This document shows, one piece after another, positions 8,017-34,683 of a stretch of DNA of 43,509 bases. The DNA comes from a virus. The notes beneath the pieces are model-generated. The model saw only the letters and a list, made by a program, of their open reading frames with translations. It was not told the DNA's origin and searched no databases. The translations under genes and the position numbers were made by a program. Position 1 is the first letter of the stretch, and the number at the start of each line of letters is the position of its first letter. The stretch is taken from the IMG/VR virus record IMGVR_UViG_3300047586_000336, positions 1 to 43,509 of that record, one strand, 5' to 3'.

Positions 8017-8023
8017 TTGATCC

Positions 8024-8952: not shown

Positions 8953-8968
8953 AATTTTCTCTGTAATA

Positions 8969-8997: not shown

Positions 8998-9005
8998 AAA
9001 CAGCC

Positions 9006-9938: not shown

Positions 9939-10621
9939 TTCAGTGTCTTAGGATAGCATTGATGGGTCGTATAATCTCCCTGCTTGAATATGCACCAAGC
10001 AGAATATGTCTCTGCAGGAGGAAGATATCCAGCCCACAGATGGAACTTCCGATCTTTTTCAATCAGTTTCACCCATTCTTCTAATGGGACAAGATAGACC
10101 GGATTCCCATCCCAGCAATCTGGCGTTTCTGAGACAGGAGGAGAAAACCACGGACGCACAGACCAGTTGATCAAAATCCAATCTTTAGCTACTCGTTGCA
10201 TTTCTCTCAGCGAGACCTCTCGAGCAGGAGTATCCAGTAGTGCCAGGACACAGAAGCTCAGTACAAGATCAAAACTCTTGTCACCAAACATTGACAGATC
10301 GCCTACATCAGCCACAGAGCAATATGGGCGAGCCTCTGGCTCGGCATGCTCGATGGCATAGTGTGAAATGTCCACTCCCCATGCATCAATTCCCCGCTCG
10401 CGAAAATATCTGACTTCAAAGCCTTTGGCACAGCCTATAAAGAGAACTTTTTTGATTCCCTTGCTGCCAAGATACTGCTGGAAGAAATCCCATTTCACTT
10501 TCAGCCAGTACTGCACCCCTGGCATGTCCCATTCGTATCCACAACTTCCTGGTCCCGTTCCATTCGGGTCCTCAAAATATCCCTTCTCAAAGTTCTTTCC
10601 GACTTCTTCGATTGTCTTCAC
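9935..10621 (-). CDS. Class I SAM-dependent methyltransferase
   Basis: 228 residues, GTG start overlapping the upstream stop (GTGA), with a GGGGTGAG ribosome binding site. Motif I is VLFIGCAKGFEVRYFRERG, followed by AWGVDISHYAIEHA (motif II acidic residue) and SFDLVLSFCVLALLD (motif IV region), a pattern of methyltransferase 11-type enzymes. A DWILINWSVRPWFSPP segment replaces the usual substrate lid. Its tight coupling to a GT2 enzyme suggests methylation of a transferred sugar, but this is inferred. Confidence 0.82.
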   Translation of the reverse strand: MKTIEEVGKNFEKGYFEDPNGTGPGSCGYEWDMPGVQYWLKVKWDFFQQYLGSKGIKKVLFIGCAKGFEVRYFRERGIDAWGVDISHYAIEHAEPEARPYCSVADVGDLSMFGDKSFDLVLSFCVLALLDTPAREVSLREMQRVAKDWILINWSVRPWFSPPVSETPDCWDGNPVYLVPLEEWVKLIEKDRKFHLWAGYLPPAETYSAWCIFKQGDYTTHQCYPKTLK

Positions 10622-11400
10622 AGTTGCTCACCCCAGATTTTCATAGAGAGTCTCCTAATCTCTTCGGGATGCTGTCCTATGAATGGCTGCACCCCTGGCA
10701 GAGTCAAAGCTGCTATGTCGTATTGATACCAATTTTCTGCGTAAAATTTCTCCCAGTCCTTTGGACCATATTTGGGCAGGTAGTCTCCTCGCTCAAGATA
10801 TTGATGCACCTTGAAATGTGTGCGCTCGCGCGAGAGGATATGCCCATAATGGTAGAAGAAGACATTCGGCATCGGCACAAGCACAGCTGGGACAGGAGTG
10901 TGGGGATAGGTGTGACGAAATATCCCAAAAGGACGATACAATCCACCTATGCTCTCGCCCCATGTAAAATGATGGAGATCATTCATGAAGTGTTTAACAC
11001 ACAAAGCATATGTCAGTATCGAGTCTGGCATAGCCTGCAGTTGTCGCATCAGCTCCTCTATGCCAGCAGAGTCAAAAACCTCATCAGAGTCTTGAATCAT
11101 AATCCAGTTATTGAAATCCTTTGGGACAATGTCTTCACATACTTGTCGCTGTGCTCCTTCGTTCCAGGTGCCAGTAGGGTGTCCGTCATTGCACTCAGGA
11201 GTATTCACGAATGTGCCCTGGACCACTTGAACATTGCTGCCACATGAGCGAGCTAGTTCTGCTGTGCCATCTGTAGAGGGTCCGAGCGGAGATCCATCTA
11301 CAACTATGATCTTTTCAGCAAAGGGAGCTGTGGATCTGATGGCAGCCTCAATGATAGGACCGGAATTGTATGCAATCATTTCCACGAATAACTTGGCCAT
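10618..11400 (-). CDS. Family 2 glycosyltransferase
   Basis: 260 residues from the ATG of MAKLFVEMIAYNS; a longer frame would overlap the upstream methyltransferase. It has the GT-A nucleotide-sugar fold: ENPIIEAAIRS-like helix, IIVVDGSPLGPSTDGTAELA, and the metal-binding DxD-type IQDSDEVFD. The remainder contains an aromatic-rich acceptor region (FMNDLHHFTWGESIGGLYRP). It probably transfers a sugar to a protein or glycan together with the flanking methyltransferases and the large glycosyltransferase. Acceptor unknown. Confidence 0.85.
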   Translation of the reverse strand: MAKLFVEMIAYNSGPIIEAAIRSTAPFAEKIIVVDGSPLGPSTDGTAELARSCGSNVQVVQGTFVNTPECNDGHPTGTWNEGAQRQVCEDIVPKDFNNWIMIQDSDEVFDSAGIEELMRQLQAMPDSILTYALCVKHFMNDLHHFTWGESIGGLYRPFGIFRHTYPHTPVPAVLVPMPNVFFYHYGHILSRERTHFKVHQYLERGDYLPKYGPKDWEKFYAENWYQYDIAALTLPGVQPFIGQHPEEIRRLSMKIWGEQL

Positions 11401-11404
11401 CGTA

Positions 11405-12187
11405 TTATCCAGGAAATTTCCACCCAAGCTCTGTGGCCATATGCTGAGATACAGAGCCTATTCCCACAGCCTTTGCTCGGAGGCATATCCTTCCAATGGA
11501 CGCTGTTCCTGGCTGAACAAATATAGAAACAGAGTCCTCGTCAGGCTCAAATAGAGACATCTTACACATCGCCAGAAGACAGCTTTTATTCGGTGCCCAC
11601 CAGGTGGACTCGTCGTTATAAATCCTTCCTTCTGGATAGTTTAGCAATGCCAAAGACTCCTTTGAATCGTCAAGATATACCGCTGTCTCGAGCAAGAGAT
11701 CACCGCCTTCTTTTATACATCTGCGACTCTCTGATAGCACGAGCAGTGGATCCCGAACATGATACAGCAGGCCTAAATTCTGGACAACATCAAATAGTTC
11801 TCCGTTGGAATGATAAGTAAAGAAACAATCCAGCCGATTGTATAGATCCTGCACAATTACACCAAAATATGGGATAACCTTGCTCTGTCGAATTTGCTTG
11901 GCAAACAGCAGACGAGGAATATAGGAGGATTGGCCCATGTCAGCTGCCACAATTGTCTTGGCTCCCAAATCTTCGGCCTCGAATGCCCACATCCCGTCGG
12001 CCGCCCCTAAATCAAGAACCATCTTTCCTGTATAATCGATGCCAGCCCGTACACGACGAGTAGAGGCCCATTCCTCCTTCATTGCTGATGCCATCAATGG
12101 GCCTGTAATGAATCCCTTGCCCAGATAAATTTCGTGATACCATGGCGAGAGCTCTAGGATCTTATCTTTGATCTCTTGTTCAGTCAT
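11405..12187 (-). CDS. CmoB/DUF1698-like methyltransferase
   Basis: 260 residues starting MTEQEIKDKI with a GAGGAG site 8 bases upstream and an ATGA overlap with the 909-residue glycosyltransferase. Features are SPWYHEIYLGKGFITGP near the N-terminus, motif I MVLDLGAADGMWAFEAEDLG, and FDVVQNLGLLYHVRDPLLVL followed by LLLETAVYLDD. This order matches the DUF1698/CmoB branch of SAM enzymes, which transfer methyl or carboxymethyl groups. Homologues in glycan clusters act on sugars; a tRNA role is less likely here given the company of glycosyltransferases. Confidence 0.8.
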   Translation of the reverse strand: MTEQEIKDKILELSPWYHEIYLGKGFITGPLMASAMKEEWASTRRVRAGIDYTGKMVLDLGAADGMWAFEAEDLGAKTIVAADMGQSSYIPRLLFAKQIRQSKVIPYFGVIVQDLYNRLDCFFTYHSNGELFDVVQNLGLLYHVRDPLLVLSESRRCIKEGGDLLLETAVYLDDSKESLALLNYPEGRIYNDESTWWAPNKSCLLAMCKMSLFEPDEDSVSIFVQPGTASIGRICLRAKAVGIGSVSQHMATELGWKFPG

Positions 12188-14962: not shown

Positions 14963-15049
14963 GTCACATAAGTGACTATCGCGAATCCGACGAGTCGGAT
15001 CGCATTCATGTAGATAGAGGGAGACGCGGAAGCGATTCCGCGTCTCCCT
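14963..15049. repeat. Tandem small hairpins next to the terminator
   Basis: Three further inverted repeats follow: GTCAC/GTGAC (14963-14976), ATCCGAC/GTCGGAT extended by GCG/CGC with one bulge (14981-15003), and a 13-bp stem AGGGAGACGCGGA with its complement (15018-15049), the last inside the 3' end of the HNH gene. None has a clear U-tail on the minus strand. Confidence 0.6.
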
Positions 15050-15854
15050 GCTCAACAACCACGAAAGGAGAAACGTCAAGGGAAGGAATATGCTTAAAAG
15101 GATTGAGAAGCATCTCTTGGAAATATGCAGTCCAGCCAGCTCTGTGGAAATTAGTCAAAGCATGACAGGACCTACAGAGAGCTATCAGATTCTTTGGATC
15201 ATTGTTTTTCTTGTCGTAGTCAACATGATGAATGCTAAGTTTTCTCTTTCCTTCTTTTCTCCCACATATTTGACAAGTATGATTGTCACGATCTCTGATA
15301 AACTCCTTAATAGTGTCGTTGAAATACATGCCATATGGTTCGAAAGATTTGCCATCTTCCCAAGCAGGATTGTTAGGACCTGAGACATCAGCATGATTCT
15401 CTTTCTGTTTAGCTATAGTCTCTGGAGAACGAGTCTTTCCGTACATGGGATTTCCAGAACCAGAGAAATCAGGATGATTTGCTTTCTGCTTAGCTATGGA
15501 TTCAGGAGAACGTTTTCTGCCGGTGCCAGCAACTCTTAGCTTCTCCCTGGTTTCAGCTGTCACATTCTGTTTAGCAGCTTTTATTTTTGCTACAGTCTCA
15601 GGAGAGCGAGACTTACCTCGCATGGGAGATGGCAGACCTTTGTTCCAAGGAGCCTTACCATACATGGGATTTTTAGGACCAGATTGCTCTTTGCCATAGA
15701 AGTGGCTCTTGGAGCCAGAGGAAGCTTTGCTTCGTCTGGCTCTCTCCTCAGCAGTTAGCACAGCATTGGCACAGGAATAGCATCGCTGAGAGTTTCTGGT
15801 CTTTTTAGGACGGAGACAGTCCATACAAATGAATGTTCCGATGCCTGTCTTCAT
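15006..15854 (-). CDS. HNH homing endonuclease with NUMOD3 repeats
   Basis: 282 residues, GGAGAAACGAA site before ATG. The N-terminus has a CxxC...CxxC zinc motif (CMDCLRPKKTRNSQRCYSC). Residues about 45-165 contain serial NUMOD3 units (NPMYGK, SPETIAKQKENH). The HNH nuclease follows: HTCQICGRKEG, LSIHHVDYDKKNNDPKNL and LCRSCHALTNFHRAGW. It is a free-standing mobile gene directly downstream of the capsid gene. The first 25 residues are nearly identical to the HNH gene upstream of the protease gene, so the two are recent paralogues. Confidence 0.93.
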   Translation of the reverse strand: MKTGIGTFICMDCLRPKKTRNSQRCYSCANAVLTAEERARRSKASSGSKSHFYGKEQSGPKNPMYGKAPWNKGLPSPMRGKSRSPETVAKIKAAKQNVTAETREKLRVAGTGRKRSPESIAKQKANHPDFSGSGNPMYGKTRSPETIAKQKENHADVSGPNNPAWEDGKSFEPYGMYFNDTIKEFIRDRDNHTCQICGRKEGKRKLSIHHVDYDKKNNDPKNLIALCRSCHALTNFHRAGWTAYFQEMLLNPFKHIPSLDVSPFVVVEQGDAESLPRLPLST

Positions 15855-15918: not shown

Positions 15919-17163
15919 TTAGCTAGAAGTAATCGTAATTTTTACTAGCCCTGAATTTGTAGTAGAATTGGTGGCCTCGTCAGGAATGACACCATACGCG
16001 TAACGACTCATCGCCCCTTGGCTGAACTGAGTGAAGTCGTTGCCCAGGATATACTTGTCCGAAACAAACAGAGGAATGTAAGGACAGTAATATCCAACAG
16101 CGAATTTCCAATCCGTTCCGCGCAGCCCCATCAGGATCTCATTGTCCGGGTACCACGGCGCCACGTAAATTTGGTACATGCCGGCCAAAGTGCCCACGTT
16201 CTGGATGCCGATGTTTCCACCCATGGCCAGACCATTCTGAGTCATGCTGAAATTCTGCAGCCGTTGGAAATACACGAAGGTCGTGGGATTCATGATCAGC
16301 CAGTTAGCGTTGGTGTGCTTATTGGTCAGCACATAGGCATTGCCCGCCACGATGGCGTCCTGATACAGCGTCTGACGATAGGCGATGGAGTCAGAGGTGA
16401 GATCGGTGCCAGCGCCCAGCTTGCCATTCTTGTTCCAGTTGACGTTGTAAGCAGCCCCATCCCGCAGAGCCTCAATGATGCGCCGATCCGTTTCCCGCAC
16501 GCATTCGTTGGTCAACTCCGGGAGCAGTTCAGCCGCCAGATCCATGTGCCACTGGGACCGAGTGTCCTGCTCAGCTTCGATCGTCCACTCCGCTTTGATC
16601 TTCTGGATGACAGTAGAGACCAGTTTTGAGGTGATCCCAAACTGAATAGCCCGAATCGTACCCTTCTCCGAGCTGGCCGCATAGTCAATAGGCCGCTTCT
16701 GATCCAGCCGATCAAGAGCAGTGATGGGGTCCTTTGCGTCAGCATAGGTCGAAGTGTACTTCGTGTCGATGTAGTAAAGATATCCAGACGGACCATTCAG
16801 TGGCTGTACCGAGACCAGCTGCATGGCGAACATGTCCTGGAAGATCCTCCGCACAGCCGGCAATAGCTGCGTGGTGAGGGTTGCGATGGCTGTGGAGACG
16901 GTGTCTTCCTGCAACCGCTGAGGCACTCCCTGTTCATTCAGGGACACCCGACCAGCTTTGCGCCGAACGCTCGTGATCCAGTTGATGGTGTTGTCATAGA
17001 CAGCTTCCATCAGCCCATACTTCTTGCCAGTCTGCTCGTCCTCAAATGAGAACTGCTGTCCTTTGCGCTCCTTCTCCGTCAGCCAACCCGTTGATTCATC
17101 GGCGCCATCAAGCTGAAGCATGTGGCGCTTCTGATTCTCAATGAATGTTTGAAACTTGTCCAT
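15919..17163 (-). CDS. Major capsid protein, T4 gp23-like
   Basis: 414 residues, strong AAGGAGAG site. Diagnostic gp23 features are LLPAVRRIFQDMFAMQLVSV leading to QPLNGPSG (about residues 100-127), EAEQDTRSQWHMDLAAELLP in the middle, and the C-terminal YYCPYIPLF plus SRYAYGVIP. The N-terminal 50-85 residues are charged and contain several L-x-E sites (LME at 51-53, LNE at 75-77, LQE at 84-86) at which a T4-type prohead protease could remove the propeptide. It follows the protease/scaffold gene. Several stretches are more GC-rich in third codon positions than neighbouring genes. Confidence 0.92.
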   Translation of the reverse strand: MDKFQTFIENQKRHMLQLDGADESTGWLTEKERKGQQFSFEDEQTGKKYGLMEAVYDNTINWITSVRRKAGRVSLNEQGVPQRLQEDTVSTAIATLTTQLLPAVRRIFQDMFAMQLVSVQPLNGPSGYLYYIDTKYTSTYADAKDPITALDRLDQKRPIDYAASSEKGTIRAIQFGITSKLVSTVIQKIKAEWTIEAEQDTRSQWHMDLAAELLPELTNECVRETDRRIIEALRDGAAYNVNWNKNGKLGAGTDLTSDSIAYRQTLYQDAIVAGNAYVLTNKHTNANWLIMNPTTFVYFQRLQNFSMTQNGLAMGGNIGIQNVGTLAGMYQIYVAPWYPDNEILMGLRGTDWKFAVGYYCPYIPLFVSDKYILGNDFTQFSQGAMSRYAYGVIPDEATNSTTNSGLVKITITSS

Positions 17164-17188: not shown

Positions 17189-17920
17189 TCAGCCTTTGAG
17201 ATAAGTCTGTTTGTACTTCTCAAACGACTCTTTGTATCCAGCTTTTGTCGCCTCTGCATAGAGACGATGTTGCTCGTCCAATGTGACCTTGCCCTGCTCG
17301 GCATCAGCCTCGCCCTCGGGATTGCCAATCACTCCCTTTGTTCCAGTACCAGAAGAAATAATCTTTGCCTTCTCGGCCTCTACCAAGAGAGACGAGATGC
17401 GAGTTTTAGATGCCAGCACAGCCTCTTCCAGTTTGTCTACAGCTACCACGTCGATCTTGTCCTCATGGATGATCTCTTTGCTGATCAGCGGAGCATAGCT
17501 CTTAAACTCTTCCTTCTCCAGCAACTCAGTCAGCTTGGTGCGCAGAGCGAGCTGAAGAGACTCTTGCTGCTTGACTGCCTCGGCAGCTGTCGCCTTCTCT
17601 TTCAGGGCGACATTCTCAGCTGTCAGAGCATCGATGGCCTTCTGCTTCTCATCCACCGGAGGAGTAGCTTTTGGGTCGGGAGCAGGCGGAGCCGGAGGCG
17701 TAACACCATCCATCTCCGAAGCTTCCACAACCACCTTCTGCAGGAATGATACATACTTGGCCTGCAGATCATCGATCTGCTTTTTGTGCTCCGTCACCAT
17801 CGTGTCCACTTTCGCTTGAAGACCAGTCAGTGTAGCTTTCGTCTCATTGATCTCTTTGTCCTTAGCCTCAATGAGCTTTTGGTCTTCCTCTAGCTTTTTG
17901 GTCAATTCCTCAATTGTCAT
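17189..17920 (-). CDS. Nested scaffold protein from an internal in-frame start
   Basis: Within the protease-scaffold gene, codon 202 is an ATG (MTIEELTKKLEED) preceded by AAAGGAGATCAAAAA, a near-perfect ribosome binding site with 8-base spacing. Translation here would give a 243-residue scaffold lacking the protease domain. Nested scaffold genes with this layout are known in lambda (C/Nu3). The site falls exactly at the boundary between the protease domain and the coiled coil, which supports a real start. Confidence 0.7.
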   Translation of the reverse strand: MTIEELTKKLEEDQKLIEAKDKEINETKATLTGLQAKVDTMVTEHKKQIDDLQAKYVSFLQKVVVEASEMDGVTPPAPPAPDPKATPPVDEKQKAIDALTAENVALKEKATAAEAVKQQESLQLALRTKLTELLEKEEFKSYAPLISKEIIHEDKIDVVAVDKLEEAVLASKTRISSLLVEAEKAKIISSGTGTKGVIGNPEGEADAEQGKVTLDEQHRLYAEATKAGYKESFEKYKQTYLKG

Positions 17921-18523
17921 TTTTTGATCTCCTTTGCCATTATCGTCGGAGGTCTCAGCTTCTCTCAGCATAGACTGCTCCATTAGTTTACGAATGCCAG
18001 CATCACCAACGCTGGCATTCAGAACAAAATCACCAGGCGAGACGAGCTTGTAGTCGTCATTGACTTCGTCGATATGGACATCGTGCCCATCGACTTCTTC
18101 GATCTTAGATGTCACCGTACCGAAACCACGAGAAGACATGCCAAGCTTTCCCCCAGCTTTGATGATGGCCTGAATGTCTTTCCCGTGTGTCGTTGGAAGA
18201 ATATCGATATTGCCAAGACATTCACCCTCACTAGTCATCCAGATCTTACGCCAGATATGGCTTGTATCTGTGCTTTCAGCCTCACCTGTTTTAGGATGAT
18301 AAGCTGCACCAAACACAGCTCCTTGTTCACATAGAGAACTGAGCTTGCCCATCTCACGCTGGAGGATCTCTTTGCGATAGCGTCTCCCATTATTGTTTCT
18401 CATTCCTGCATGCTGCCATTTGACTTCAGCGTGCAGAATCTGGTCGTCCTTGACTGTGCCTTCGTCTAGAATGCGACAGTCAGCAAGCGTCATTTCAACA
18501 AGAGGAGAAAGTTTCATGCTCAT
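17189..18523 (-). CDS. Prohead protease fused to scaffold (T4 gp21/gp22-like)
   Basis: 444 residues. Residues 1-180 are an S80/gp21-type maturation protease: VKWQHAGMRNNNGRRY near the start, the probable catalytic histidine in AAYHPKTG (H76), the serine in KLGMSSRGFGTV (S130/S131) and the closing DFVLNASV strand. Residues about 200-260 are a charged coiled coil, followed by a Pro/Ala linker (TPPAPPAPDPKATPPV) and another helical core region, as expected for a scaffold. T4 encodes these as separate proteins. A promoter stands 18 bases upstream. The protease should trim scaffold and capsid protein at (L/I)-x-E sites. Confidence 0.88.
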   Translation of the reverse strand: MSMKLSPLVEMTLADCRILDEGTVKDDQILHAEVKWQHAGMRNNNGRRYRKEILQREMGKLSSLCEQGAVFGAAYHPKTGEAESTDTSHIWRKIWMTSEGECLGNIDILPTTHGKDIQAIIKAGGKLGMSSRGFGTVTSKIEEVDGHDVHIDEVNDDYKLVSPGDFVLNASVGDAGIRKLMEQSMLREAETSDDNGKGDQKMTIEELTKKLEEDQKLIEAKDKEINETKATLTGLQAKVDTMVTEHKKQIDDLQAKYVSFLQKVVVEASEMDGVTPPAPPAPDPKATPPVDEKQKAIDALTAENVALKEKATAAEAVKQQESLQLALRTKLTELLEKEEFKSYAPLISKEIIHEDKIDVVAVDKLEEAVLASKTRISSLLVEAEKAKIISSGTGTKGVIGNPEGEADAEQGKVTLDEQHRLYAEATKAGYKESFEKYKQTYLKG

Positions 18524-18631: not shown

Positions 18632-19354
18632 TCAAGAAGCCATGGCCATTGATTCCACTGGGGTCTCTGTCTGCAATGGCAGATCTAGAGCTGAACACCA
18701 GCCATGGAGTTCGCGTTCTTGCTGTGTCTTCTGGAAGAATTCAGTCCAGGAGGATCTATTGAAATTTGTTAAAGCGTGACAAGACACACAGAGTGCTATT
18801 AGACTCCTTGGATCATTATTCTTCTTGTTGTAGTCGATATGATGGATACAAAGCTTTCTACCATTCTCTTTTCTACCACAGATTTGACAGGTATGACTGT
18901 CACGAGTGAGAACCAGTTCCTTAAGAAGAGCATTGAAGTCTCGACCATACTCTTCAAGACTCTTGCCGCCTTGCCATAAGTTGTTTTCAGGACCCGTTCT
19001 CTTCCCAAGATTGGCAATACTCAATTTCTCTCTTGTTTCAGCAGAGGGAGATATTCCTCTATTCCAAGCAAGTTGACCGAGATGAGAGAGGCTAAGTCTC
19101 TCTATAGTTTCAGCAGAGGCAGACTTGCCATAATTAGGATTATTATGTCCTGAGAAGTCGGCATGACTCTCTATCAGTTTCTTCCTGGTTTCATTAGAAC
19201 GAATCATACCAAAGTTTGGACAGTCAGGACCTTTCTTGCCAAACATTGGATTCTTTGAGCCAAGTTTCACACAGGACTTACATCGCTGTGCTCTTCTGCT
19301 CTTTTTTGGACGAAGACAGTCCATACAAATGAATGTTCCGATGCCTTCTTCCAT
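18632..19354 (-). CDS. HNH homing endonuclease with NUMOD3 repeats
   Basis: 240 residues. N-terminal zinc motif CMDCLRPKKSRRAQRCKSC, NUMOD3 units (NPMFGKKG, NPNYGKSASAETIERLS, HLGQLAWNRG), then HNH residues HTCQICGRKENG, CIHHIDYNKKNNDPRSL and LCVSCHALTNFNRSSW. It lies between the metallophosphoesterase and the protease genes. It is paralogous to the HNH genes next to capsid and portal. The C-terminal GWCSALDLP matches the end of the portal-side copy (NWCSALELS). Confidence 0.93.
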   Translation of the reverse strand: MEEGIGTFICMDCLRPKKSRRAQRCKSCVKLGSKNPMFGKKGPDCPNFGMIRSNETRKKLIESHADFSGHNNPNYGKSASAETIERLSLSHLGQLAWNRGISPSAETREKLSIANLGKRTGPENNLWQGGKSLEEYGRDFNALLKELVLTRDSHTCQICGRKENGRKLCIHHIDYNKKNNDPRSLIALCVSCHALTNFNRSSWTEFFQKTQQERELHGWCSALDLPLQTETPVESMAMAS

Positions 19355-22595: not shown

Positions 22596-23018
22596 TTATT
22601 TGCCTCTTTTCCAATTGATACCTTCTTTTGAATATGTATGTTTCAGACCAGAGATGTCAAGTCTTGCTTGCTTATTTCGTAGTCTAACAGAAGAAGAATT
22701 TCGTGGCCATGTTGATGCCTTACGATGCTCTCTATAAGTATGCAGCATGTCGGCAATATCTTTACGAGCAGCTGCAGCTTTCCCCCCGAATCTTTTCACA
22801 GAGTGTTTACCTGGTCCTGCATTTGCTTTAGCTGCAAATTTAGCCATGATCTCCTTTGAATAGTCCTTAACTCCTTTAGGAAGCTTTCGATCATGCCTGT
22901 CCTGGACTGTGTATGGCTGCTTTGATGTCTTGCCTTTGCCCCAATGCATCCCAAGAACTCCATACTCATTCAAAGCTTTCTTTCCAAACAATTCTTTGTT
23001 AGTAAATGTTTTGCTCAT
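22596..23018 (-). CDS. Leader-family small basic protein 3 (GMKWG class)
   Basis: 140 residues from the ATG of MSKTFTNKELF (a TTG two codons earlier is possible but less likely). GKKALNE then YGVLGMHWGKGK repeats the layout of member 1. The body is strongly basic (QDRHDRKLPKGVKDYSKE, GKHSVKRFGGKAAAARKD, YREHRKASTWPRNSSS). It is separated from member 4 by six bases and shares its transcript. Confidence 0.78.
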   Translation of the reverse strand: MSKTFTNKELFGKKALNEYGVLGMHWGKGKTSKQPYTVQDRHDRKLPKGVKDYSKEIMAKFAAKANAGPGKHSVKRFGGKAAAARKDIADMLHTYREHRKASTWPRNSSSVRLRNKQARLDISGLKHTYSKEGINWKRGK

Positions 23019-23024
23019 GATCAA

Positions 23025-26817: not shown

Positions 26818-27519
26818 TCAATCGAGATCGTATGTGTTCCCAAAACTCATACTTGAGATCTTTGCAGTTCCTGGCTCTAACTGCAGATAAGCATAATCCC
26901 CATCCAGACCCCAACGCTTCTTGTCCTTGTCCCAAGGAGCATACAGGACAGAGAAATTATCCAGGACATATTCATCTAGCAGTTTCTCATAAACACCAGC
27001 TACCTTCTCAACACCAGCCGATATCCCAAACCAGAACTCTGGCAACGGATTCTTGACACTATTTCTGCCTGAAGTTATCAGCTTGACCCACACACCAAGA
27101 TCCTTTGACTTTCCAGTCTCATCTTGCCAATCAGAGATATCCACATTCTCCCAAGTACGCTTGACAGGGAACTTGAGACCGATGGTCGAAGTCACCCATT
27201 TCTGCATCACCTTAATGATCTCTGTGATTCGCTCGTCTGTAATGCTAAGTTTCATAGCTTTCTCCTTATCGACCAGCCTTGCTGGCTCTGGCACAATATA
27301 GTTCTTGACTGGCTCTTCAGCTACTTGGATCTTGACAATCTCTTTGTGACAAACGAGACACGAGATCGTGACTGTGTGATCAAGTTTGTCATAAGAAGCT
27401 TCTATAGGACCACCCAGATGGCAAGCCTGATGAAAGTAAAGAACTGAATCATCATGATGATCACAGTTGGGATCTTTGCACACATGACTGTCTAAATCTT
27501 TACAGCAAAATGGTATCAT
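26818..27519 (-). CDS. Zinc-binding protein, unknown function
   Basis: 233 residues. The first 60 carry many Cys/His (CCKDLDSHVCKDPNCDHHDD, YFHQACHLGG) and ISCLVCHKEIV, likely one or two zinc sites. The rest, from about residue 90, is a mixed domain (RITEIIKVMQKWVTSTIGLK, PEFWFGISAGVEKVAG) with an aromatic C-terminus. ATGA overlap with the upstream gene. No named family recognised. Confidence 0.68.
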   Translation of the reverse strand: MIPFCCKDLDSHVCKDPNCDHHDDSVLYFHQACHLGGPIEASYDKLDHTVTISCLVCHKEIVKIQVAEEPVKNYIVPEPARLVDKEKAMKLSITDERITEIIKVMQKWVTSTIGLKFPVKRTWENVDISDWQDETGKSKDLGVWVKLITSGRNSVKNPLPEFWFGISAGVEKVAGVYEKLLDEYVLDNFSVLYAPWDKDKKRWGLDGDYAYLQLEPGTAKISSMSFGNTYDLD

Positions 27520-28004
27520 TTGGCCACTCCTGAGACAAGAGTTATCCAGCCTGCGCTGGGGACACAGCTATACTTTCTCTTAAATTCTATCCATGCCACA
27601 TCGTGCGGGATAGCACTGCCTCGTGCCACAGCCGCATCATAGAGCACAAGCCATTCATCAAATAACGCTTGGTCATTGTTCAACATGCTGAGATAGAGAT
27701 TGGGAACTTTACGGGGATCGGTGAGCTGAACAGCAGGAGTAGCTTTGGGCTGAAAGTCCATAAGCACTTCTTGCTCCACGAGATCCTCGGCATCATGCTC
27801 AGCATCAGCCTTCTCTTGGATCTTGTCCAATGCTGTCAGTGTGTCACTTACAGAATGGCTCAGCACCCATTCCCATGTTAGTTTCTCTGCCTGGATGGCA
27901 CGAATTGTACGCTCCGCTTGCTCGTCGGAAGTGAAGCCATGGTTGAACAGACGAGCAAAAAACATGCTGTTAGAAGTGAAAAAGTCTTCATGTCGCTCTG
28001 CCAT
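27516..28004 (-). CDS. Unknown protein, first gene of lysis operon
   Basis: 162 residues, TAGGAGAAGCTG site. Acidic overall; N-terminal helices (FFARLFNHGFTSDEQAERT, LTWEWVLSHSVSDTLTALDK) and a C-terminal segment with WIEFKRKYSCVPSAGWI. It opens the operon that includes the amidase and is directly downstream of a promoter. No function recognised. Confidence 0.68.
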   Translation of the reverse strand: MAERHEDFFTSNSMFFARLFNHGFTSDEQAERTIRAIQAEKLTWEWVLSHSVSDTLTALDKIQEKADAEHDAEDLVEQEVLMDFQPKATPAVQLTDPRKVPNLYLSMLNNDQALFDEWLVLYDAAVARGSAIPHDVAWIEFKRKYSCVPSAGWITLVSGVAK

Positions 28005-28022
28005 CAGCTTCTCCTACTCATA

Positions 28023-28051
28023 ATTATACGCTTATCCATGGGCAGTTTATA
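28023..28051 (-). promoter_or_regulatory. Class A promoter (CCATG spacer element) for lysis operon
   Basis: TATAAT preceded by GCG, with a CCATG element 8 bases further upstream and a poor -35 (TATAAA). The same N4-CCATG-N5-GCG-TATAAT spacing is found at three other sites in this window. It overlaps the MuF gene stop. Confidence 0.75.
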
Positions 28052-30599
28052 GACCCATCGCTTTGATTACATAAGCAAGAGTTTCCCAGCCACCCTGATA
28101 AAATACTTTCAGCAGCTTAATATCACCACTCCCTCTAACTACCCACTCTCTCTCATAATTGAAACTTGACCATTTCATACCAGGAGACCATAAAATGTCC
28201 TTGATTGGGACCTCAAATCTGACAACTGCCGTGCCACTAAGTCCCCCGAAATTCCTTCTCAAGTATTCAAAGTCATCTGACATCCCTGCAACAGAGTTGG
28301 CAATAACAGATTTATGCTCTGCTATGCTGGCAGCAATATTTTTGATTTCCGCATCTGAAACAGCTCGATACAAGATCTTTGGGCTAGCAGATAACACTTC
28401 CCGCTCAGCCAACTGCTGGCTAAAGAAAGAGCTCTCTCTTAACATCTGCTCAATCTCTTTCCTGATCTCTGCCACGACCGCTGGGTCCTTGGTGCCATAA
28501 AATCCACCAATCAATGACTCTATACTCTTGGCATTTTCAGCTGTCGTGAAAGAAGGCTCATAAGCTGCTGAAACAATTCCCTCTTGCTTCGCTATAAGTT
28601 TCTTCATCAGCAGACGAGCATCTGTATCATCTCTTGCCCAGCCATTGGCAAGAGACTGAAATCTTCCATGCACAGATTCCTTAGTGAATAACTGTTTGGC
28701 TGCATTGCTCGTCTCTACATCAGCCCATGTACTGCCAGGAAGCTCCGTTGCCTTCTCACCCAGAGTAGCATTCAGCCTTCGTAACAATTCCCCATCAGAG
28801 ATATTTTCATACTGTGGTTGCATTCTAAACAGCACATCCGTATTGTGATTCCATGTAACAGCACCATCCGTGGTCTCAAGACTCAGATAATCATAGGCTG
28901 TGTCTCTGACGACACCACGGATCACTTTGTTGCCTCGGAGCAGAACGAATTCGTCGCCTTTGCTAACCACTTTAGACTGCAGCATGCTATACAATTCATC
29001 ATCGGCCATCAGTCGTCCCCCAAAAGTCGCAGCGTCCTCTGCTGCTGCCACCAAGTCACTCACAGCCACCGTTGGTGTCACGCGCACTCCCGCTCGCGAG
29101 GCAGCATTTATAATGTCACCATTGATAGAGCGACGAGTCTTAATCCATTCTAATTTGTCAGCAGGATTATCAGCCAGCTGAACCATTTGACGAGCTTTGT
29201 ACATGCTACTGTACATATCGTCAAACTCAGATTTTAACACGCCCTCAATTGGCATGCCATTGGTTGCATCCTCAACCCAGGCAGCTCCAGGAGGAACTCC
29301 GACTCCAGGTAGAGCAGGAATGCTGGCAGCGGGAGCTCGGCGTACATTGAGAGAACATTTGCAATTAGAGAGACATTGAGTATCACCAGCTCGTGGTGTC
29401 GTTGGAAGTGTCTCCCAAGTATAACTCCGCTGACTGAGAATTACACAGTCATCACAATGATTGTCATTAGGACCAAGCACCCAATCAATCTCGATATTCT
29501 CTCCCGCACCTGCTAAAATTCCATTCTGCCATGCGCTTTTTGCAGAATCTGCATACATCATCGCTCGCTTATCATAAGGAATGCGTGGAGTGTGATCAGG
29601 ATCTTTGATATCAATGAGAAACTTAGAGAAGAATGTCTCCTCGTGAGCAATGGCTTTAGCTATGAAATCTTGATCCTGGCTAGTCAGGCCCATCTCATCA
29701 TAGAATGGATTGCCAGAAGCTTTTGAGCCTGCCAGGAACATCTTCTCATAAGCCTCTGATGTAGCGGAACGCCAGCGATCTATAGCCTGGTTGAAATCAA
29801 GTGTGCCTCCTGCATACTTGGCATATATGTCAGTCAGCTCAGCTCTGAAGCCCGAGTCAATGTCTGCTACAGCAGCATAGCCAGCCTGCATGACCTTTTG
29901 ATTGCGCATACCCAGAGAAAAATATAAGGTTGACTGGCCTTGCATTATGGGATTTTTAGCAACAGCCCCAGAAATTGCTTTGTCTGATTCAGAAAGAAGC
30001 TCCATAAAAACTGCAAGAACATCTTCACGTATGAAATTTAGAGATTGTTTTCGAGCTGCTTTGTCTTTGCCAAGCAGCTGCTCTTTGAGAATCCTTGATG
30101 CTTCAATGCCGCCATTAACATAAACAGCACTAGAGATGAATCCTTCAGGATTCTGCTCTGGATTAGGATATAAAGTATAGTCTCTTCCTCCAGACAAGCC
30201 ACCCACCTTCACTCGGACAATAGTATAATGCCAATCCTTGCCGTCTTGACTAGCGTCGTGTTGCTGGACATCCCTATACCATCCAGCTTCATCTCTGTCA
30301 CCAAACAGAAATATACGACCTCTCTTGCCACCATAAAGCTCTCCATGATATCCCGACACCAAGCCTCTTTTCTTTATGTCTTTAAAAGATACATCAGGAA
30401 TAACATGATAAGCAATAGAGCCAGGAGCAAATTTCCCTCTAATAATAGACAGCTGATTCATAACAGGCTCTGCTGTCTTAGTCCCACCCTCTTTGGCACT
30501 CCCTCCTACTTCATTTGGTCTTCCTGCATGGCCCCAGTTGCCAGACTCAGGAGTCCCATATTCCAGCAGAGAAGGATTGTCAGATGGGGGTGGCATCAC
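28047..30599 (-). CDS. MuF-type minor head protein with ADP-ribosyltransferase-like ends
   Basis: 850 residues. The N-terminus has SLLE then YGTPESGNWGHAGRP and EVGGS, a short element that recurs in phage head proteins. Residues about 63-180 look like an ART/KptA-type fold (AYHVIPDVSFKDIKKRGLVS, IFLFGDRDEAGWY). The MuF core is clear: DNHCDDCVILSQRSYTW with PRAGDTQCLSNCKC (Cys 382, 385, 409, 413, 415). The C-terminus has ILYRAVSD (R745), GLSGTAVVRFEV and NYEREWVV (ExE at 816-818), compatible with an R-S-E ART. Start is GTG or the next ATG; no clear ribosome binding site. MuF fusions are thought to be packaged and injected. Confidence 0.78.
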   Translation of the reverse strand: MMPPPSDNPSLLEYGTPESGNWGHAGRPNEVGGSAKEGGTKTAEPVMNQLSIIRGKFAPGSIAYHVIPDVSFKDIKKRGLVSGYHGELYGGKRGRIFLFGDRDEAGWYRDVQQHDASQDGKDWHYTIVRVKVGGLSGGRDYTLYPNPEQNPEGFISSAVYVNGGIEASRILKEQLLGKDKAARKQSLNFIREDVLAVFMELLSESDKAISGAVAKNPIMQGQSTLYFSLGMRNQKVMQAGYAAVADIDSGFRAELTDIYAKYAGGTLDFNQAIDRWRSATSEAYEKMFLAGSKASGNPFYDEMGLTSQDQDFIAKAIAHEETFFSKFLIDIKDPDHTPRIPYDKRAMMYADSAKSAWQNGILAGAGENIEIDWVLGPNDNHCDDCVILSQRSYTWETLPTTPRAGDTQCLSNCKCSLNVRRAPAASIPALPGVGVPPGAAWVEDATNGMPIEGVLKSEFDDMYSSMYKARQMVQLADNPADKLEWIKTRRSINGDIINAASRAGVRVTPTVAVSDLVAAAEDAATFGGRLMADDELYSMLQSKVVSKGDEFVLLRGNKVIRGVVRDTAYDYLSLETTDGAVTWNHNTDVLFRMQPQYENISDGELLRRLNATLGEKATELPGSTWADVETSNAAKQLFTKESVHGRFQSLANGWARDDTDARLLMKKLIAKQEGIVSAAYEPSFTTAENAKSIESLIGGFYGTKDPAVVAEIRKEIEQMLRESSFFSQQLAEREVLSASPKILYRAVSDAEIKNIAASIAEHKSVIANSVAGMSDDFEYLRRNFGGLSGTAVVRFEVPIKDILWSPGMKWSSFNYEREWVVRGSGDIKLLKVFYQGGWETLAYVIKAMGL

Positions 30600-30608
30600 A
30601 TTACTGTG

Positions 30609-30794
30609 TCAATATTTATTACGAGCCAGTGCCTTGTGGCGCATCGCGGATCGGTGCAGTTTGTAACTCGTGCGAGGATCTGATTCCTTTCTAGACTTGG
30701 TCTGCAAAGCCTGCGCCACGGCGTGATGGTGCTCCTTGGCAGGTGCCTGCTCTCTGATATTGAAGATGTCTTTATTTGTAAATGTTTTGCTCAT
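30609..30794 (-). CDS. Leader-family small basic protein 7 (short)
   Basis: 61 residues. MSKTFTNKDIFN then IRE (13-15, putative cleavage site) and QAPAKEHHHAVAQALQ; it lacks both the SEGAKKGW and the GMKWG elements. The tail is basic (TKSRKESDPRTSYKLHRSAM). It lies between the portal-side poly-alanine gene (ATGA overlap) and the MuF gene, which suggests co-packaging with the MuF protein. Confidence 0.75.
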   Translation of the reverse strand: MSKTFTNKDIFNIREQAPAKEHHHAVAQALQTKSRKESDPRTSYKLHRSAMRHKALARNKY

Positions 30795-31281: not shown

Positions 31282-33006
31282 TTATTTATGTCGATGGAAC
31301 AACCGCTTGCTTGCAGGAATTCCAATTTTAGCCATCTGATTGTCATCGCGAATAGCCATTCTCCACGACATCAGATCGTGCAATTGTTCAAGCATCTCTC
31401 TTATGTAGGGGTCACGTCTTACAAGTTTTGCCATCTCAGGAGGAAGCTGTGTATAGCCATACGACCCTGTGTTAACATCAGCAGGCTGAACACCAGGAGT
31501 GCCAGCATCTTGCTGTGCATTAGGATCAGCGTTCGGATCATAGCCATAGTCTTGCTGCTGTCCTCCGCTCCCGCCCTCGGGCGCGAGAGCCATGTCCTCT
31601 GGTGCGATGGCGGAATACTTCGCAATCTCATCATCGTCAAAGTCCAAGATCTCTCTCATGATCCATTCTGTATTAAGCACAGCCATGTCCACCGCATATG
31701 TCTTGGCCAGCTGAGCCTTGCTCGTTGCGATCTGCCACTTCACCAGCTCGTCCATCGTGGCCAGCTCTGGGAAGGAAATGTCCCACTTGAAACTCTTGGG
31801 ATCTATGCCACCAAGCACAAGCACGACTTCATAGAATCTTTTTAGAGCAGCCAGCAGAGACATCTGCTTGCGCCGCACCTGACGAGCAAACTGGACATCC
31901 AGCTGAGTCAGAGTAGCACGAGCACTCACTCCTTCCTCAAGTGACACATAAGCTTTGGGAGTATTGGTGGCAGTAAAGAATTTGTTCTGGAGATATTCTA
32001 CATCTCGCACATTGCTGACATTGGTGTCACCGCTGAGTGTACGCACATCAGTCCTACCGTCCTTCGTGACAGGAAGACCAATGTCCTCGTCTGGCAGCAA
32101 GGCTCTGTCGCTTTCTGTGATACGCCCAGAGCCACGATCTACAATCTCACGACGCTGGACACGAGCCATGAATTTGTCAACATAGTCAAACGACTGGTCA
32201 GGCGACAGTCCCGACGTGTCAATAATATAGGCATAACGCATCCATGCTCTACTCATGCGAGCCAGCACCAGAGCGTCATCAATCCATATAAGCTGGCGAC
32301 CAATACGAGTGGCAGCATTGGCAAAGATGGCTCGATCTACTCCATATGTATCAAAGCCAATCTTGAAATGCAGTAGTCTCCACCAGTCAAAAGGAATCTT
32401 ATCATTGCTCCCAGAACGAATCTGGAAATATGGCTTCTCGGCGTCTCGAGTGACACCATACTCATCAACATCGGCAAATACTTCTTTCACAGGTAAGGCT
32501 TTCAACTTGACAGGCAGAGGAGTTCCTCCCTCACCATAGTCACCAAGCACGATCTCATAAAATGAGTCCCCAAATTTGCTGGTGTTGCGAGCAATGTCCC
32601 ACACCTGCTCTTTGATTCCTGTCTTAGCTTCAACCTTCTTGACCAACTCTTCGGCCTGGAGTTTCAGAGCTGCAGGAGTATCCTTGTCAACATTGAACCA
32701 GAAACATTCCTCACCACCAATGGAGCCAGCCACAATTGTATCCGCATAGACATTCAGCACTCCGGCTGCTTCCGCCAGGTTTTCATCAAGGAAATTGTAG
32801 CGATCATATTTCTCAAGACGCTGGCGAGTCGTTGCCATGGAGCTGTAATAATAATCCTGCAGAGCCTTGCCAAGTATTGAAGGATAATTGGCAGGAGCCG
32901 GAATTAATTCAGAAGTTTGGCTGGCATCCTCTACTGGCGAGGAGCCAAAGGATTTGTTGATAAAATTTCTTATGCGATCAACGAGTGTGGCATTTCGTTC
33001 TTCCAT
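31282..33006 (-). CDS. Portal protein, T4 gp20-like
   Basis: 574 residues, AGAGGTATAAA site. It shows the gp20 order: YDRYNFLDENLAEAAGVLNV near the start, VWDIARNTSKFGDSFYEIVL, the WWRLLHFKI strand, MSRAWMRYAYIIDTSG, and YLQNKFFTATNTPKAYVSLE with SARATLTQLDVQFARQVRRK. The C-terminal 120 residues are Pro/Gln/Gly-rich then helical. It forms the DNA-passage ring at one capsid vertex and is the docking site for the terminase. Confidence 0.92.
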   Translation of the reverse strand: MEERNATLVDRIRNFINKSFGSSPVEDASQTSELIPAPANYPSILGKALQDYYYSSMATTRQRLEKYDRYNFLDENLAEAAGVLNVYADTIVAGSIGGEECFWFNVDKDTPAALKLQAEELVKKVEAKTGIKEQVWDIARNTSKFGDSFYEIVLGDYGEGGTPLPVKLKALPVKEVFADVDEYGVTRDAEKPYFQIRSGSNDKIPFDWWRLLHFKIGFDTYGVDRAIFANAATRIGRQLIWIDDALVLARMSRAWMRYAYIIDTSGLSPDQSFDYVDKFMARVQRREIVDRGSGRITESDRALLPDEDIGLPVTKDGRTDVRTLSGDTNVSNVRDVEYLQNKFFTATNTPKAYVSLEEGVSARATLTQLDVQFARQVRRKQMSLLAALKRFYEVVLVLGGIDPKSFKWDISFPELATMDELVKWQIATSKAQLAKTYAVDMAVLNTEWIMREILDFDDDEIAKYSAIAPEDMALAPEGGSGGQQQDYGYDPNADPNAQQDAGTPGVQPADVNTGSYGYTQLPPEMAKLVRRDPYIREMLEQLHDLMSWRMAIRDDNQMAKIGIPASKRLFHRHK

Positions 33007-33033: not shown

Positions 33034-33570
33034 TCATGATAGTTCTAGAGCTGAGCACCAGTTGTGTAATTTGCGCTTCTTCTGGACTTCTTGAAACCAG
33101 TTAATCCATTCGGATCTGTTAAAATTCGTTATAGAATGACAAGAATTGCACAGCTCTATAAGATTCATAGTATCATTGTTTTTCTTGTCATAGTCGATGT
33201 GATGAATGCAATGTTTTCTTGTGCCTTCTTTTCGTCCACAGATTTGGCAAGTGTGATGATCACGCTCGCCAACAAATTCATGAAGAACTCTATCAAATTC
33301 TCTACCATACTCTTCAAAACTCTTGCCATCGTGCCAGTTGATATTATCAGAGCCTGACATTCTCCCATACCAGTAATTCTTGGAGCCAATCTTAGCAAGA
33401 CTCTGTTTCTTCCTTGTCGCATCAGAGGGAGAGATTCCTCTATTCCAAGCAGGCTTGCCAAGGTGAGAAAGTCTAAGTTTCTCTTTGTGCTCAGCAGACA
33501 TATGCTTGCCGAGATGAGAAAGTCTAAGTTTCTCTTTATTCTCAGCAGACATATGCTTGCCTTTTGCCAT
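33034..33570 (-). CDS. HNH homing endonuclease with tandem NUMOD3 repeat
   Basis: 178 residues. Two nearly identical 17-residue NUMOD3 units at the N-terminus (MSAENKEKLRLSHLGKH and MSAEHKEKLRLSHLGKP), then AWNRGISPSDATRKK, and the HNH part (HTCQICGRKEGTRKH, CIHHIDYDKKNNDTMNL, LCNSCHSITNFNRSEW). It lacks the N-terminal zinc motif of its two paralogues. It sits between portal and leader-family genes. Confidence 0.92.
   Translation of the reverse strand: MAKGKHMSAENKEKLRLSHLGKHMSAEHKEKLRLSHLGKPAWNRGISPSDATRKKQSLAKIGSKNYWYGRMSGSDNINWHDGKSFEEYGREFDRVLHEFVGERDHHTCQICGRKEGTRKHCIHHIDYDKKNNDTMNLIELCNSCHSITNFNRSEWINWFQEVQKKRKLHNWCSALELS
33455..33556. repeat. Two tandem 51-bp direct repeats in HNH gene
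   Basis: The segment from TTGCC to the next TTGCC is repeated with a 51-base period, differing at only a few positions. It is exactly 17 codons, the length of one NUMOD3 DNA-binding unit, so recent duplication has added a repeat to the protein. Confidence 0.9.
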
Positions 33571-33840
33571 TTAGGACTTCCTTCCAAGCATTTTCAACAC
33601 TTGATTTCTTTCTCTAACTCGTGCTCGTCTCATAGATGGGTGAAAATGGCTTTTTCTAAGATCACTTTCGATATTGACAAGAGCACTCTCCAGACCTGAC
33701 GAGGAATATGTAATTCCCCCAGAATTTATCTCTCTACTCTCTACACCACGATTGACTGTGTCCTTATGAGTGCCCCATTTCATGCCTTTGACGCCCATTT
33801 CATTCAGGCCAAGATCCTTGTTCGTGAATGTGTGGCTCAT
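33571..33840 (-). CDS. Leader-family small basic protein 8 (GMKWG class, divergent leader)
   Basis: 89 residues, GGAGCTTAATAGC site. Leader MSHTFTNKDLG, then LNE (12-14) and MGVKGMKWGTHKD. The leader is shorter and has H for K. The C-terminal half is basic (SDLRKSHFHPSMRRARVRER). It lies between the HNH gene (no spacer) and member 9. Confidence 0.76.
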   Translation of the reverse strand: MSHTFTNKDLGLNEMGVKGMKWGTHKDTVNRGVESREINSGGITYSSSGLESALVNIESDLRKSHFHPSMRRARVRERNQVLKMLGRKS

Positions 33841-33844: not shown

Positions 33845-34237
33845 TTAAGCTCCGTGATAATCAGATCCTTCCCATCGTTTGCGCTGTGATATCTGTAGGG
33901 CAGCAGAGCCCCGAGAAGGAGAAGAATAAAAAGAGCTCCTTCGTCTTGCTTTTTTCTGCTGTTTCAATACCAGTGTCTGTACATATCGATTAGCAGCCTT
34001 TGTCTGTCCAAATCTCTTCAGGGAATTCTTCGCTGCCTGCACCCCCAGCGCAGCCTTTGGCTCACTTTTGGCATATTTTCTACCAATCTTGATGCCTCCG
34101 GCTAGAAAATCTCTATCAATCTGAGACTTGTGACTATCACTTCCGTGCCGAGTCTTCCAGCCTTTGACAGCTCCTTCAGAGTTTCCTTCCTCGTGAAGCT
34201 TGCCAAACAATTGCTTGTTTGTAAAAGTGTGACTCAT
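33845..34237 (-). CDS. Leader-family small basic protein 9 (SEGAKKGW class)
   Basis: 130 residues. MSHTFTNKQLFGKLHEEGNS then EGAVKGWKTRHG; LHE (14-16) is the putative cleavage site. The body is basic (GRKYAKSEPKAALGVQAAKN, LVLKQQKKARRRSSFYSSPS). Overlaps nothing; four bases separate it from member 8. Confidence 0.78.
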   Translation of the reverse strand: MSHTFTNKQLFGKLHEEGNSEGAVKGWKTRHGSDSHKSQIDRDFLAGGIKIGRKYAKSEPKAALGVQAAKNSLKRFGQTKAANRYVQTLVLKQQKKARRRSSFYSSPSRGSAALQISQRKRWEGSDYHGA

Positions 34238-34248: not shown

Positions 34249-34683
34249 TTATCTGAATTTTCTTACAGCACGTGCACGAGGAGGAGCTACAGGATTCCGC
34301 ACAGCAGATGGTGCGACCCCTCTGAATCCACCAGCATGTGCTCTACTCGGAGATGCACTACGAGCAGGAGCTGCAAATACAGGCACAGGTCTCGGGGCAT
34401 TTCTTTTCACAGGAGATGTCGGTGCAGGTCTCTTTGGGGCTGGAGAGAATTTGCGAAACTTGGCTCCTGGATTCGTGGGCAAAGGCTTGAAGGGAATAGG
34501 TTTCTTCTTGATGGGTCTGATAGGCTTGAAGAAAATAGGTTTCTTCTTCTTTGGCTTATTAGGAATAACTCTTGGCAGCGGAGTCACAGCTCCACCGCCT
34601 GACTTTTTGCTACCAAATGTGCCCGAAGGCACAGCTTCCCTAAGATCACCGAACAGCTCTTTGTTTGTAAATGTTTTGCTCAT
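34249..34683 (-). CDS. Leader-family basic protein 10, lysine/proline-rich
   Basis: 144 residues, AAGGAATC site; first gene after a promoter. Leader MSKTFTNKELFGDLRE (site LRE, 14-16) is followed by a low-complexity region: repeated K-P blocks (KPKKKKPIFFKPIRPIKKK), PAPKRPAPTSPVKR, and an Arg/Ala/Pro C-terminus (RNPVAPPRARAVRKFR). There is no compact domain, and the composition resembles histone-tail or protamine-like DNA-neutralising proteins. It stands between terminase and portal genes. Confidence 0.78.
   Translation of the reverse strand: MSKTFTNKELFGDLREAVPSGTFGSKKSGGGAVTPLPRVIPNKPKKKKPIFFKPIRPIKKKPIPFKPLPTNPGAKFRKFSPAPKRPAPTSPVKRNAPRPVPVFAAPARSASPSRAHAGGFRGVAPSAVRNPVAPPRARAVRKFR

What the first reader, a model, noticed from the sequence alone, without database searches (positions are those of the whole stretch)
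28047..30599. MuF protein with possible ADP-ribosyltransferase folds at both ends
The MuF core (CDDC ... CLSNCKC) is flanked by an N-terminal segment like ART/KptA (AYHVIPDVSFKDIKKRGL) and a C-terminal segment with R745, a SGTAVVRF strand and ExE 816-818, the layout of R-S-E ARTs. MuF fusions carrying toxins are known; a double-ART version next to leader-family genes suggests an injected effector. It also combines a MuF protein with a T4-like portal, an uncommon pairing.
Basis: partly seen in the sequence, partly recalled or inferred. Interest (0 to 1): 0.75.

Follow-up and report, generated by a model that had tools for sequence, protein, structure and literature searches.

The report
Phage head protein carrying swappable ADP-ribosyltransferase
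A T4-like environmental phage makes a head protein that appears to be trimmed, packed into the virus particle and injected with the DNA, and its tail end is an enzyme-like domain that differs as a swapped block in a near-identical sister genome.

Summary
The ORF (850 aa, 28047-30599, minus strand) is real. Its C-terminal domain (721-850) is an ADP-ribosyltransferase (ART) fold: weak DRAT match (E 2e-4), model pLDDT 76.5, Foldseek's top 11 PDB rows all ART-superfamily, and a profile match (E 3e-6) to four tagged phage ARTs, two of which exceed the DRAT cut-off. R745 and E816-x-E818 are kept, but the family's serine is glycine (G772) in both known alleles, so "R-S-E" is not met.

The N-terminal ART is unproven: the model failed (pLDDT 36.7) and no ART family matched. 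The core is phrog_24776, a portal-adjacent cysteine-motif family; PF04233 does not match it. The T4-type portal is confirmed; this pairing was absent from 10 of 10 sampled T4-portal phages.

New: a sister contig is about 100% identical except for a patch of saturated divergence covering the ART and the next gene, as in allele exchange. The protein starts with a T4-type L-x-E site (SLLE), then a peptide tag (GNWGHAGRP) that recurs in unrelated phage proteins beside portals, MuF, Nudix, ARTs and GNATs.

Reading: an Alt-like packaged, injected ART effector on a MuF-like head protein; a new variant of the known MuF-ART kind.

The parts
28047..30599 (-). 850-aa MuF-like head protein with C-terminal ART domain (GTG start; ATG at the second codon is an equally possible start)
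30561..30599 (-). residues 1-13, putative propeptide ending in S-L-L-E (L-x-E site)
   Evidence: cleavage rule L/I-x-E from PMC9026906
30486..30560 (-). residues 14-38, tag YGTPESGNWGHAGRPNEVGGSAKEG
30090..30425 (-). residues 59-170, N-terminal domain, possible H-type ART, unproven
29316..29789 (-). MuF-like core (phrog_24776), motif CDDC ... CLSNCKC
28440..29234 (-). residues 456-720, linker region; 456-510 is shared weakly with L101, 545 onward differs between alleles
28050..28439 (-). residues 721-850, DRAT-like ART-fold domain
28365..28367 (-). R745, ART arginine in beta-1
28278..28286 (-). G772-M773-S774 at the place of the S-x-[S/T] motif
28146..28154 (-). E816-R817-E818, ExE motif
27600..28950 (.). 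patch diverged from the sister contig in an otherwise about 100% identical stretch (allele exchange)
27516..28004 (-). 162-aa ORF of unknown family, partly inside the exchanged patch; candidate immunity or companion protein
31282..33006 (-). T4-type portal protein
17189..18523 (-). head maturation protease (phrog_207)
15919..17163 (-). major head protein, T4 gp23 type
30609..30794 (-). 61-aa leader-family ORF (MSKTFTNKDIFNIRE) directly upstream

Best explanation
This is a portal-associated, virion-packaged ART effector of a T4-type phage, working like T4 Alt but built on a MuF-like head protein. Proposed steps: (1) the 13-residue N-terminal propeptide and the MuF-like core bring the protein into the prohead at the portal (inferred); (2) the phage's T4-type protease cuts after SLLE13, exposing the YGTPESGNWGHAGRP tag (site shown, cut inferred); (3) the mature protein leaves with the DNA and enters the host (inferred); (4) the C-terminal DRAT-like ART domain transfers ADP-ribose from NAD+ to a host target, or hydrolyses NAD+ (fold and R/ExE shown; activity and target inferred, and doubtful because the serine is Gly); (5) the ART module and the start of the next gene are exchanged as a block between otherwise identical phages (divergence shown; reason, a change of target or immunity, inferred). 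The N-terminal domain after the tag is a second cargo domain, possibly an H-type ART (weak).
For: C-terminal fold: pLDDT 76.5, pTM 0.69. Foldseek PDB rows 1-11 are all ART superfamily by title or recall, row 12 unrelated. VIA-align: 44 of the 50 rows shown are ART/PARP/Tpt1 enzymes by title or by the names, best Z 7.5. DRAT profile: E 2e-4 on the domain alone, 9.3e-6 in the window with 0 of 14 control genomes ringing. hhalign against four tagged phage ARTs: E 3e-6; score 39.4 against a maximum of 17.8 in 100 column shuffles. Two of those four (L101, L031) exceed the DRAT cut-off. L101, a relative with a 33%-identical T4-type portal, has the same core and a C-terminal DRAT-type ART on one protein. 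Selection: residues 541-840 show dS 0.85 to saturated with dN 0.22-0.48, while residues 1-420 show dS 0, so the alleles diverged long ago under purifying selection and were then exchanged. Packaging: one L/I-x-E at the leader end in 6 of 6 window proteins checked. Of 152 tags, 10 follow L/I-x-E directly and 9 of the 10 lie in L031 and L101, which encode a T4-type protease homologue and a T4-type portal. Tag neighbours include portal, Nudix, PF04233 MuF, PF03496 ART and GNAT.
Against: No Foldseek hit passes E 0.001; the best PDB E is 0.078, and VIA Z is under 8, where the tool warns of chance. The fold model rests on two sequences and the ExE stretch has pLDDT about 65. The sister allele alone hits no Pfam family at E 10. 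The conserved serine is Gly in both alleles, so the enzyme may be altered or dead. No virion proteomics, cleavage or activity data exist. In other phages most tags are not preceded by L/I-x-E (142 of 152), and seven new T4-type portal relatives carry no tag, so tag, cleavage site and T4 head are separable.
Confidence: 0.62

Rival explanations
1. The C-terminal domain keeps the ART fold but is catalytically dead or only binds NAD+ or a partner; the protein is then mainly structural, and the fold serves as a binding module.
For: Gly replaces the family serine in both alleles. The top structural rows include ART folds I recall as non-catalytic, such as IcmQ and PARP13.
Against: R745, E816 and E818 are kept in both alleles although only about half of the aligned residues are, and dN/dS is about 0.2-0.3 over the domain. 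Some ARTs tolerate change at this serine (recalled).
Confidence: 0.2
2. It is a true polymorphic MuF toxin of a temperate phage, with the 162-aa downstream ORF as cognate immunity protein, used against competing bacteria rather than for takeover of the infected host.
For: The exchanged patch runs from the C-terminal domain into that ORF; MuF toxins are usually followed by a small ORF (PMC5576092, Results); the MuF-ART Bxa has adjacent immunity genes (PMC11699363, passages).
Against: ORF162 is longer than the under-150-aa rule, is of no known family, and keeps about 86% protein identity between alleles whose ART is 53% identical. No ADP-ribosyl hydrolase or macrodomain in the window. T4-type head genes suggest, but do not prove, a virulent phage.
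Confidence: 0.15
3. The C-terminal divergence is drift of an unimportant tail, or chimeric assembly, not functional exchange.
For: Only one allele pair is known; both sequences come from metagenome assemblies.
Against: dS is saturated inside the patch and 0 outside, with dN far below dS; both ORFs are intact and alignable; the divergence tapers on both sides as after homologous recombination.
Confidence: 0.05

Closest known systems
MuF toxins and MuF-ART fusions (PMC5576092; PMC9503650; Bxa, PMC11699363)
   Same: Portal-adjacent head protein with a C-terminal effector; ADP-ribosyltransferase among the known cargoes; small ORF downstream.
   Different: Core is phrog_24776 rather than PF04233; T4-type portal, protease and capsid; DRAT-like ART with Gly for Ser; extra N-terminal domain behind a tag. 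[quoted passage not shown]
T4 Alt (packaged, injected ART with gp21-cleaved propeptide)
   Same: ART domain in a T4-type head; N-terminal sequence ending in L/I-x-E; predicted injection.
   Different: Alt is not fused to a MuF-like core and has no such tag (recalled); ART subfamily differs (Alt/VIP2 against DRAT-like).
DRAT, dinitrogenase reductase ART (PF07357)
   Same: Best Pfam match of the C-terminal domain; relatives L101 and L031 exceed the cut-off.
   Different: In the window protein only profile positions 155-249 of 256 are covered, below cut-off; phage structural context; no DraG-type hydrolase (PF03747) in the window.
Polyvalent proteins of phages (PMC5512222)
   Same: Several effector domains on one virion-associated polypeptide, ART common among them.
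   Different: 850 aa, cargo on both sides of a MuF-like core; the GNWGHAGRP tag was not mentioned in the passages I saw.

Membership tests
ADP-ribosyltransferase superfamily (C-terminal domain) | Split beta-sheet ART fold | tested here: met
   Model with ART strand order; ART proteins in Foldseek rows 1-11 and 44 of 50 VIA rows; caveat: no hit below E 0.001
R-S-E clade ART (C-terminal domain) | Arg in beta-1 | tested here: met
   R745 invariant in 6 of 6 aligned domains
R-S-E clade ART (C-terminal domain) | Ser of the S-x-[S/T] motif in beta-2 | tested here: not met
   G772 in the window allele and the same G-M-S in L002; Ser in 4 of 4 relatives
R-S-E clade ART (C-terminal domain) | Catalytic Glu, usually ExE | tested here: met
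   E816-x-E818 in both alleles
DRAT PF07357 | Score above the curated cut-off of 25 bits | tested here: not met
   21.1 bits for the domain; relatives L101 and L031 reach 45.5 (whole ORF) and 31.1 (domain)
ART superfamily (N-terminal domain) | ART fold or ART family match | tested here: inconclusive
   Unusable model; no family match; borderline profile score
MuF (PF04233) | Match to the Pfam model | tested here: not met
   No candidate at E 10; phrog_24776 matched instead
MuF as a kind | Lies downstream of the portal gene and has a zinc-type Cys motif | tested here: met
   Portal at 31282-33006, two small ORFs between, CDDC...CLSNCKC
MuF polymorphic toxin | Exchange of the C-terminal domain between related proteins | tested here: met
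   One pair of alleles, saturated dS only in the C-terminal part and its flank
MuF polymorphic toxin | Cognate immunity protein | not testable with these tools
   162-aa ORF is in the right place but has no known family
T4 capsid-targeted internal protein (Alt-like) | N-terminal propeptide cut at L/I-x-E by a gp21-type protease | tested here: inconclusive
   Site present (SLLE13) and protease gene present; cleavage itself not testable

The most novel reading that the evidence does not exclude
The GGPGSGN[W/F/H]GHxGRPGxxGGS peptide is a general cargo tag for proteins packed in tailed-phage heads. It joins portals, MuF proteins and short targeting leaders to interchangeable effector domains (ARTs, GNATs, Nudix, others) in unrelated phages. 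In some T4-type phages it sits directly behind the prohead-protease site, so cleavage exposes it. The protein here carries the tag, a divergent H-type ART, a MuF-like core and an exchangeable DRAT-like ART: a two-ART injected effector.
Probability: 0.3. Interest if true: 0.8.

Novelty: new variant of a known kind. Interest (0 to 1): 0.58.

Why it matters
It joins two delivery logics usually described apart: T4-style targeting into the head by a cleaved leader, and MuF-style effectors at the portal. The natural pair of near-identical phages differing in the ART module is a ready experiment on what such effectors target. The tag offers a sequence handle for finding packaged effectors of unknown function across many phages; paper searches for six letter strings of the tag and of its possible GVKGMKWG variant found no paper, though papers seldom print such strings.

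Tried and rejected
N-terminal homology: weak tblastn hits in Rhodococcus phage E3 gp27, Microcystis phage Mae-JY35 portal, Mycobacterium phage JustASigh gp75 and a Halorubrum plasmid (E 0.8-9); the three phage proteins were read and judged chance. L085's H-type domain: BLASTP to the N-terminal domain not significant; an iterative search from it did not reach the window protein.

C-terminal homology: Streptococcus phage hits (E 1-4) and Sphingobium plasmid hits (E 8) judged chance. PDB sequence searches: no ART match. PADLOC: only a weak Csm3 match, E 0.045, over residues 607-695, judged chance.

Genome scans: genome contigs found no relative with the whole protein or with the N-terminal domain. 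Annotated phages and plasmids: no match to the whole protein.

The seven new portal relatives (L154-L160) carry no tag, so the tag is not general in T4-type-portal phages. No fold search was run on the N-terminal model because its confidence is too low.

Full report
1. What is there. The ORF at 28047-30599 (-) is an 850-aa protein, downstream of a T4-type portal (PF07230, E 1.9e-38) with two small ORFs between. A head maturation protease (phrog_207) and a T4-type major head protein (phrog_138) lie elsewhere in the window. The record is a 43.5-kb linear virus contig, possibly a fragment. One close relative was found in IMG/VR, L002/L003, and none in annotated phages, plasmids or bacterial genomes at the sensitivity used.

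2. C-terminal domain. Pfam's only match is DRAT, below its cut-off: 16.4 bits for the whole protein, 21.1 bits and E 2e-4 for residues 721-850 alone. Searched in the window it rings at one place only, E 9.3e-6, against 0 of 14 control genomes. The sister allele alone hits no family. AlphaFold2 on the two alleles gave pLDDT 76.5 and pTM 0.69. Foldseek against the PDB returned IcmQ, PARP13, Tne2, TreTu, PARP4 and RES in rows 1-11, all ART superfamily by title or by my recall, then unrelated proteins; but the best E is 0.078. VIA-align gave Z 7.5 for TreTu and 6.9 for Tpt1. By title, or by the entry names, 44 of the 50 rows shown are ART, PARP or Tpt1/KptA enzymes; the other six are IcmQ, entry 1wfx, CC0527 twice and CNFy twice, several of which I recall as ART folds. 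In BFVD the best E is 8.8e-3 and row 14 is a 'Phage head morphogenesis domain-containing protein'.

3. Intermediates. Loci fetched through the tag (section 6) contain four ART-like domains related to one another: L101, L031, L135, L023. L101 and L031 exceed the DRAT cut-off (45.5 bits over the whole L101 ORF, 31.1 bits for the L031 domain; L135 and L023 hit nothing). The profile of our two alleles matches the profile of these four at E 3e-6, probability 88%. A local repeat scored 39.4, while 100 column shuffles reached at most 17.8 and the reversed alignment 14.3. In the joint alignment R745 is invariant. The family's N-x3-S-W-[S/T] reads N-S-V-A-G-M-S here and N-A-V-V-G-M-S in the sister, so the serine is Gly in both. 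E816-x-E818 is kept. The domain is therefore a DRAT-like ART relative with an altered middle motif; catalytic activity is inferred, not shown.

4. N-terminal domain. The single-sequence model failed (pLDDT 36.7, pTM 0.24). Pfam and PHROGs found nothing, and targeted searches with KptA, DarT, ART-PolyVal and DUF3990 profiles found nothing in the window. Among 9864 ORFs, a hand-made pattern modelled on its layout found 7, of which 5 carry the tag, ours included; 174 of the 9864 carry the tag. A profile of four such domains scores 20.2 against our domain, above 200 shuffles (maximum 18.5) and 200 random ORF pieces (maximum 18.7), but hhalign's own probability was 2.5% and the profile was chosen partly by the same layout. 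I call this suggestive only.

5. Core. The C-x2-C ... C-x3-C-x-C core belongs to phrog_24776 (E 7.8e-10). Two other members sit just downstream of the portal gene in cyanobacterial phages; BLASTP to Cr-LKS4 g09 is 26% over 147 columns, E 1e-10 for that single comparison. PF04233 does not match. Of 10 T4-type-portal phages (W01, W03, W05-W12) none has phrog_24776 or PF04233. L101 is the exception: a T4-type portal 33% identical to ours and the same core (E 5.6e-19), a tag, HEAT-like repeats and a DRAT-type ART on one 1274-aa ORF, its core split by an intein. So the MuF-like core plus C-terminal ART recurs in this lineage.

6. Leader and tag. Residues 10-13 are S-L-L-E. T4's prohead protease cuts after L/I-x-E, and a roughly 10-residue leader targets proteins into the T4 head (PMC9026906, passages; see also PMC5694885, passages, and PMC3012670, passages). 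All five MS[KH]TFTNK ORFs and this protein have exactly one L/I-x-E in the stretch examined (first 40-45 residues), starting at position 11-16. Directly behind SLLE comes YGTPESGNWGHAGRPNEVGGS. In 94 loci (L023-L116) the tag occurs 145 times in 126 ORFs, and columns outside the searched pattern are conserved too (G-G-x-G-S before: 131-141 of 145; G-G-S after: 140-142 of 145). Of 16 post-tag regions scanned, out of 23 tag ORFs of the first pattern, 5 have a PF03496 ART above cut-off and one a GNAT above cut-off; of 4 pre-tag regions, 2 are portal plus Nudix, 1 is PF04233 MuF and 1 hits nothing. Of 152 tags, 10 follow L/I-x-E directly and 9 of these are in L031 and L101, which have a T4-type protease homologue and a T4-type portal. 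The seven new portal relatives (L154-L160) have no tag, so this is not universal. Paper searches for the tag strings found nothing; papers seldom print such strings, so this is weak evidence of novelty.

7. Exchange of the ART module. Window and sister contig are about 100% identical over most of roughly 10 kb. Between about 27600 and 28950 identity falls to 52-88%. In the protein, dS is 0 for residues 1-420, 0.10 and 0.18 for 421-540, 0.85 for 541-600 and 1.4 to saturated for 601-850, with dN 0.22-0.48 over 541-840; ORF162 shows dS 0.71, 0.59 and 0.15 along its length, and the portal C-terminus 0.23-0.25. This is an old pair of alleles, both under purifying selection, brought into one background by recombination. 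It is one pair only, and both come from metagenome assemblies.

8. Mechanism and comparison. Shown: fold (predicted), kept R and ExE, position, tag, L-x-E site, allele divergence. Inferred: packaging, cleavage, injection, catalysis, target. MuF proteins with ART cargo are known (PMC5576092, outline and Results read; PMC9503650, passages), and one, Bxa, is tested and has immunity genes (PMC11699363, passages). T4 Alt is the model for a packaged ART (PMC5512222, passages). This case differs in its T4-type head, non-PF04233 core, DRAT-like ART, Gly for Ser and the tag. No ADP-ribosyl hydrolase or macrodomain was found in the window. I rate it a new variant of a known kind; the double-ART claim is not established.

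Noticed in passing
L023-L116: Recurrent peptide GGPGSGNxGHxGRPGxxGGSxxGGG, 145 copies in 126 ORFs, at protein N-termini or between head-protein and effector domains in unrelated phages; several copies in neighbouring genes of one phage.
   Followed up: partly
window 34249-34683, 33845-34237, 33571-33840, 30609-30794, 22596-23024 (-): Five ORFs share the leader MS[KH]TFTNK ending in L/I-x-E; two continue with GVKGMKWG / GVLGMHWG, which may be a variant of the tag.
   Followed up: partly
L101 ORF at 7816-11637 (same DNA in L153): Intein with a DUF559-type nuclease-like domain inserted inside the Cys motif of the MuF-like core (TSEC / NCLSACKC).
   Followed up: no
L101 ORFs starting 5321, 11652, 12716 (+); L031 ORFs starting 11903, 10728, 9333, 8118 (-): A different leader family (LIKDISSEVLTALFE and relatives) ends in L-x-E and runs straight into the tag, like a T4 capsid-targeting sequence plus cleavage site.
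   Followed up: partly
L085 ORF 2-3064 (+): MuF (PF04233) fused through tag-like linkers to an H-type ART-like domain and a topoisomerase IB.
   Followed up: no
L026, three ORFs with post-tag regions 4657-5748, 5843-6937, 1853-2911 (-): Three tagged PF03496 ARTs in one phage stretch.
   Followed up: no
window 31400-31700: Portal C-terminal region also diverges from the sister contig (dS 0.23-0.25) while its protein is nearly unchanged.
   Followed up: no
window 33034-33570, 18681-19117, 15006-15854: Similar HNH/NUMOD3 homing-endonuclease-like stretches at several places, possible drivers of the recombination seen.
   Followed up: no
L008 ORF 4894-7467 (+): The T4-type portal of a 595-kb uncultured phage appears to carry an intein-like insertion in its N-terminal half (read from the translation only).
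   Followed up: no
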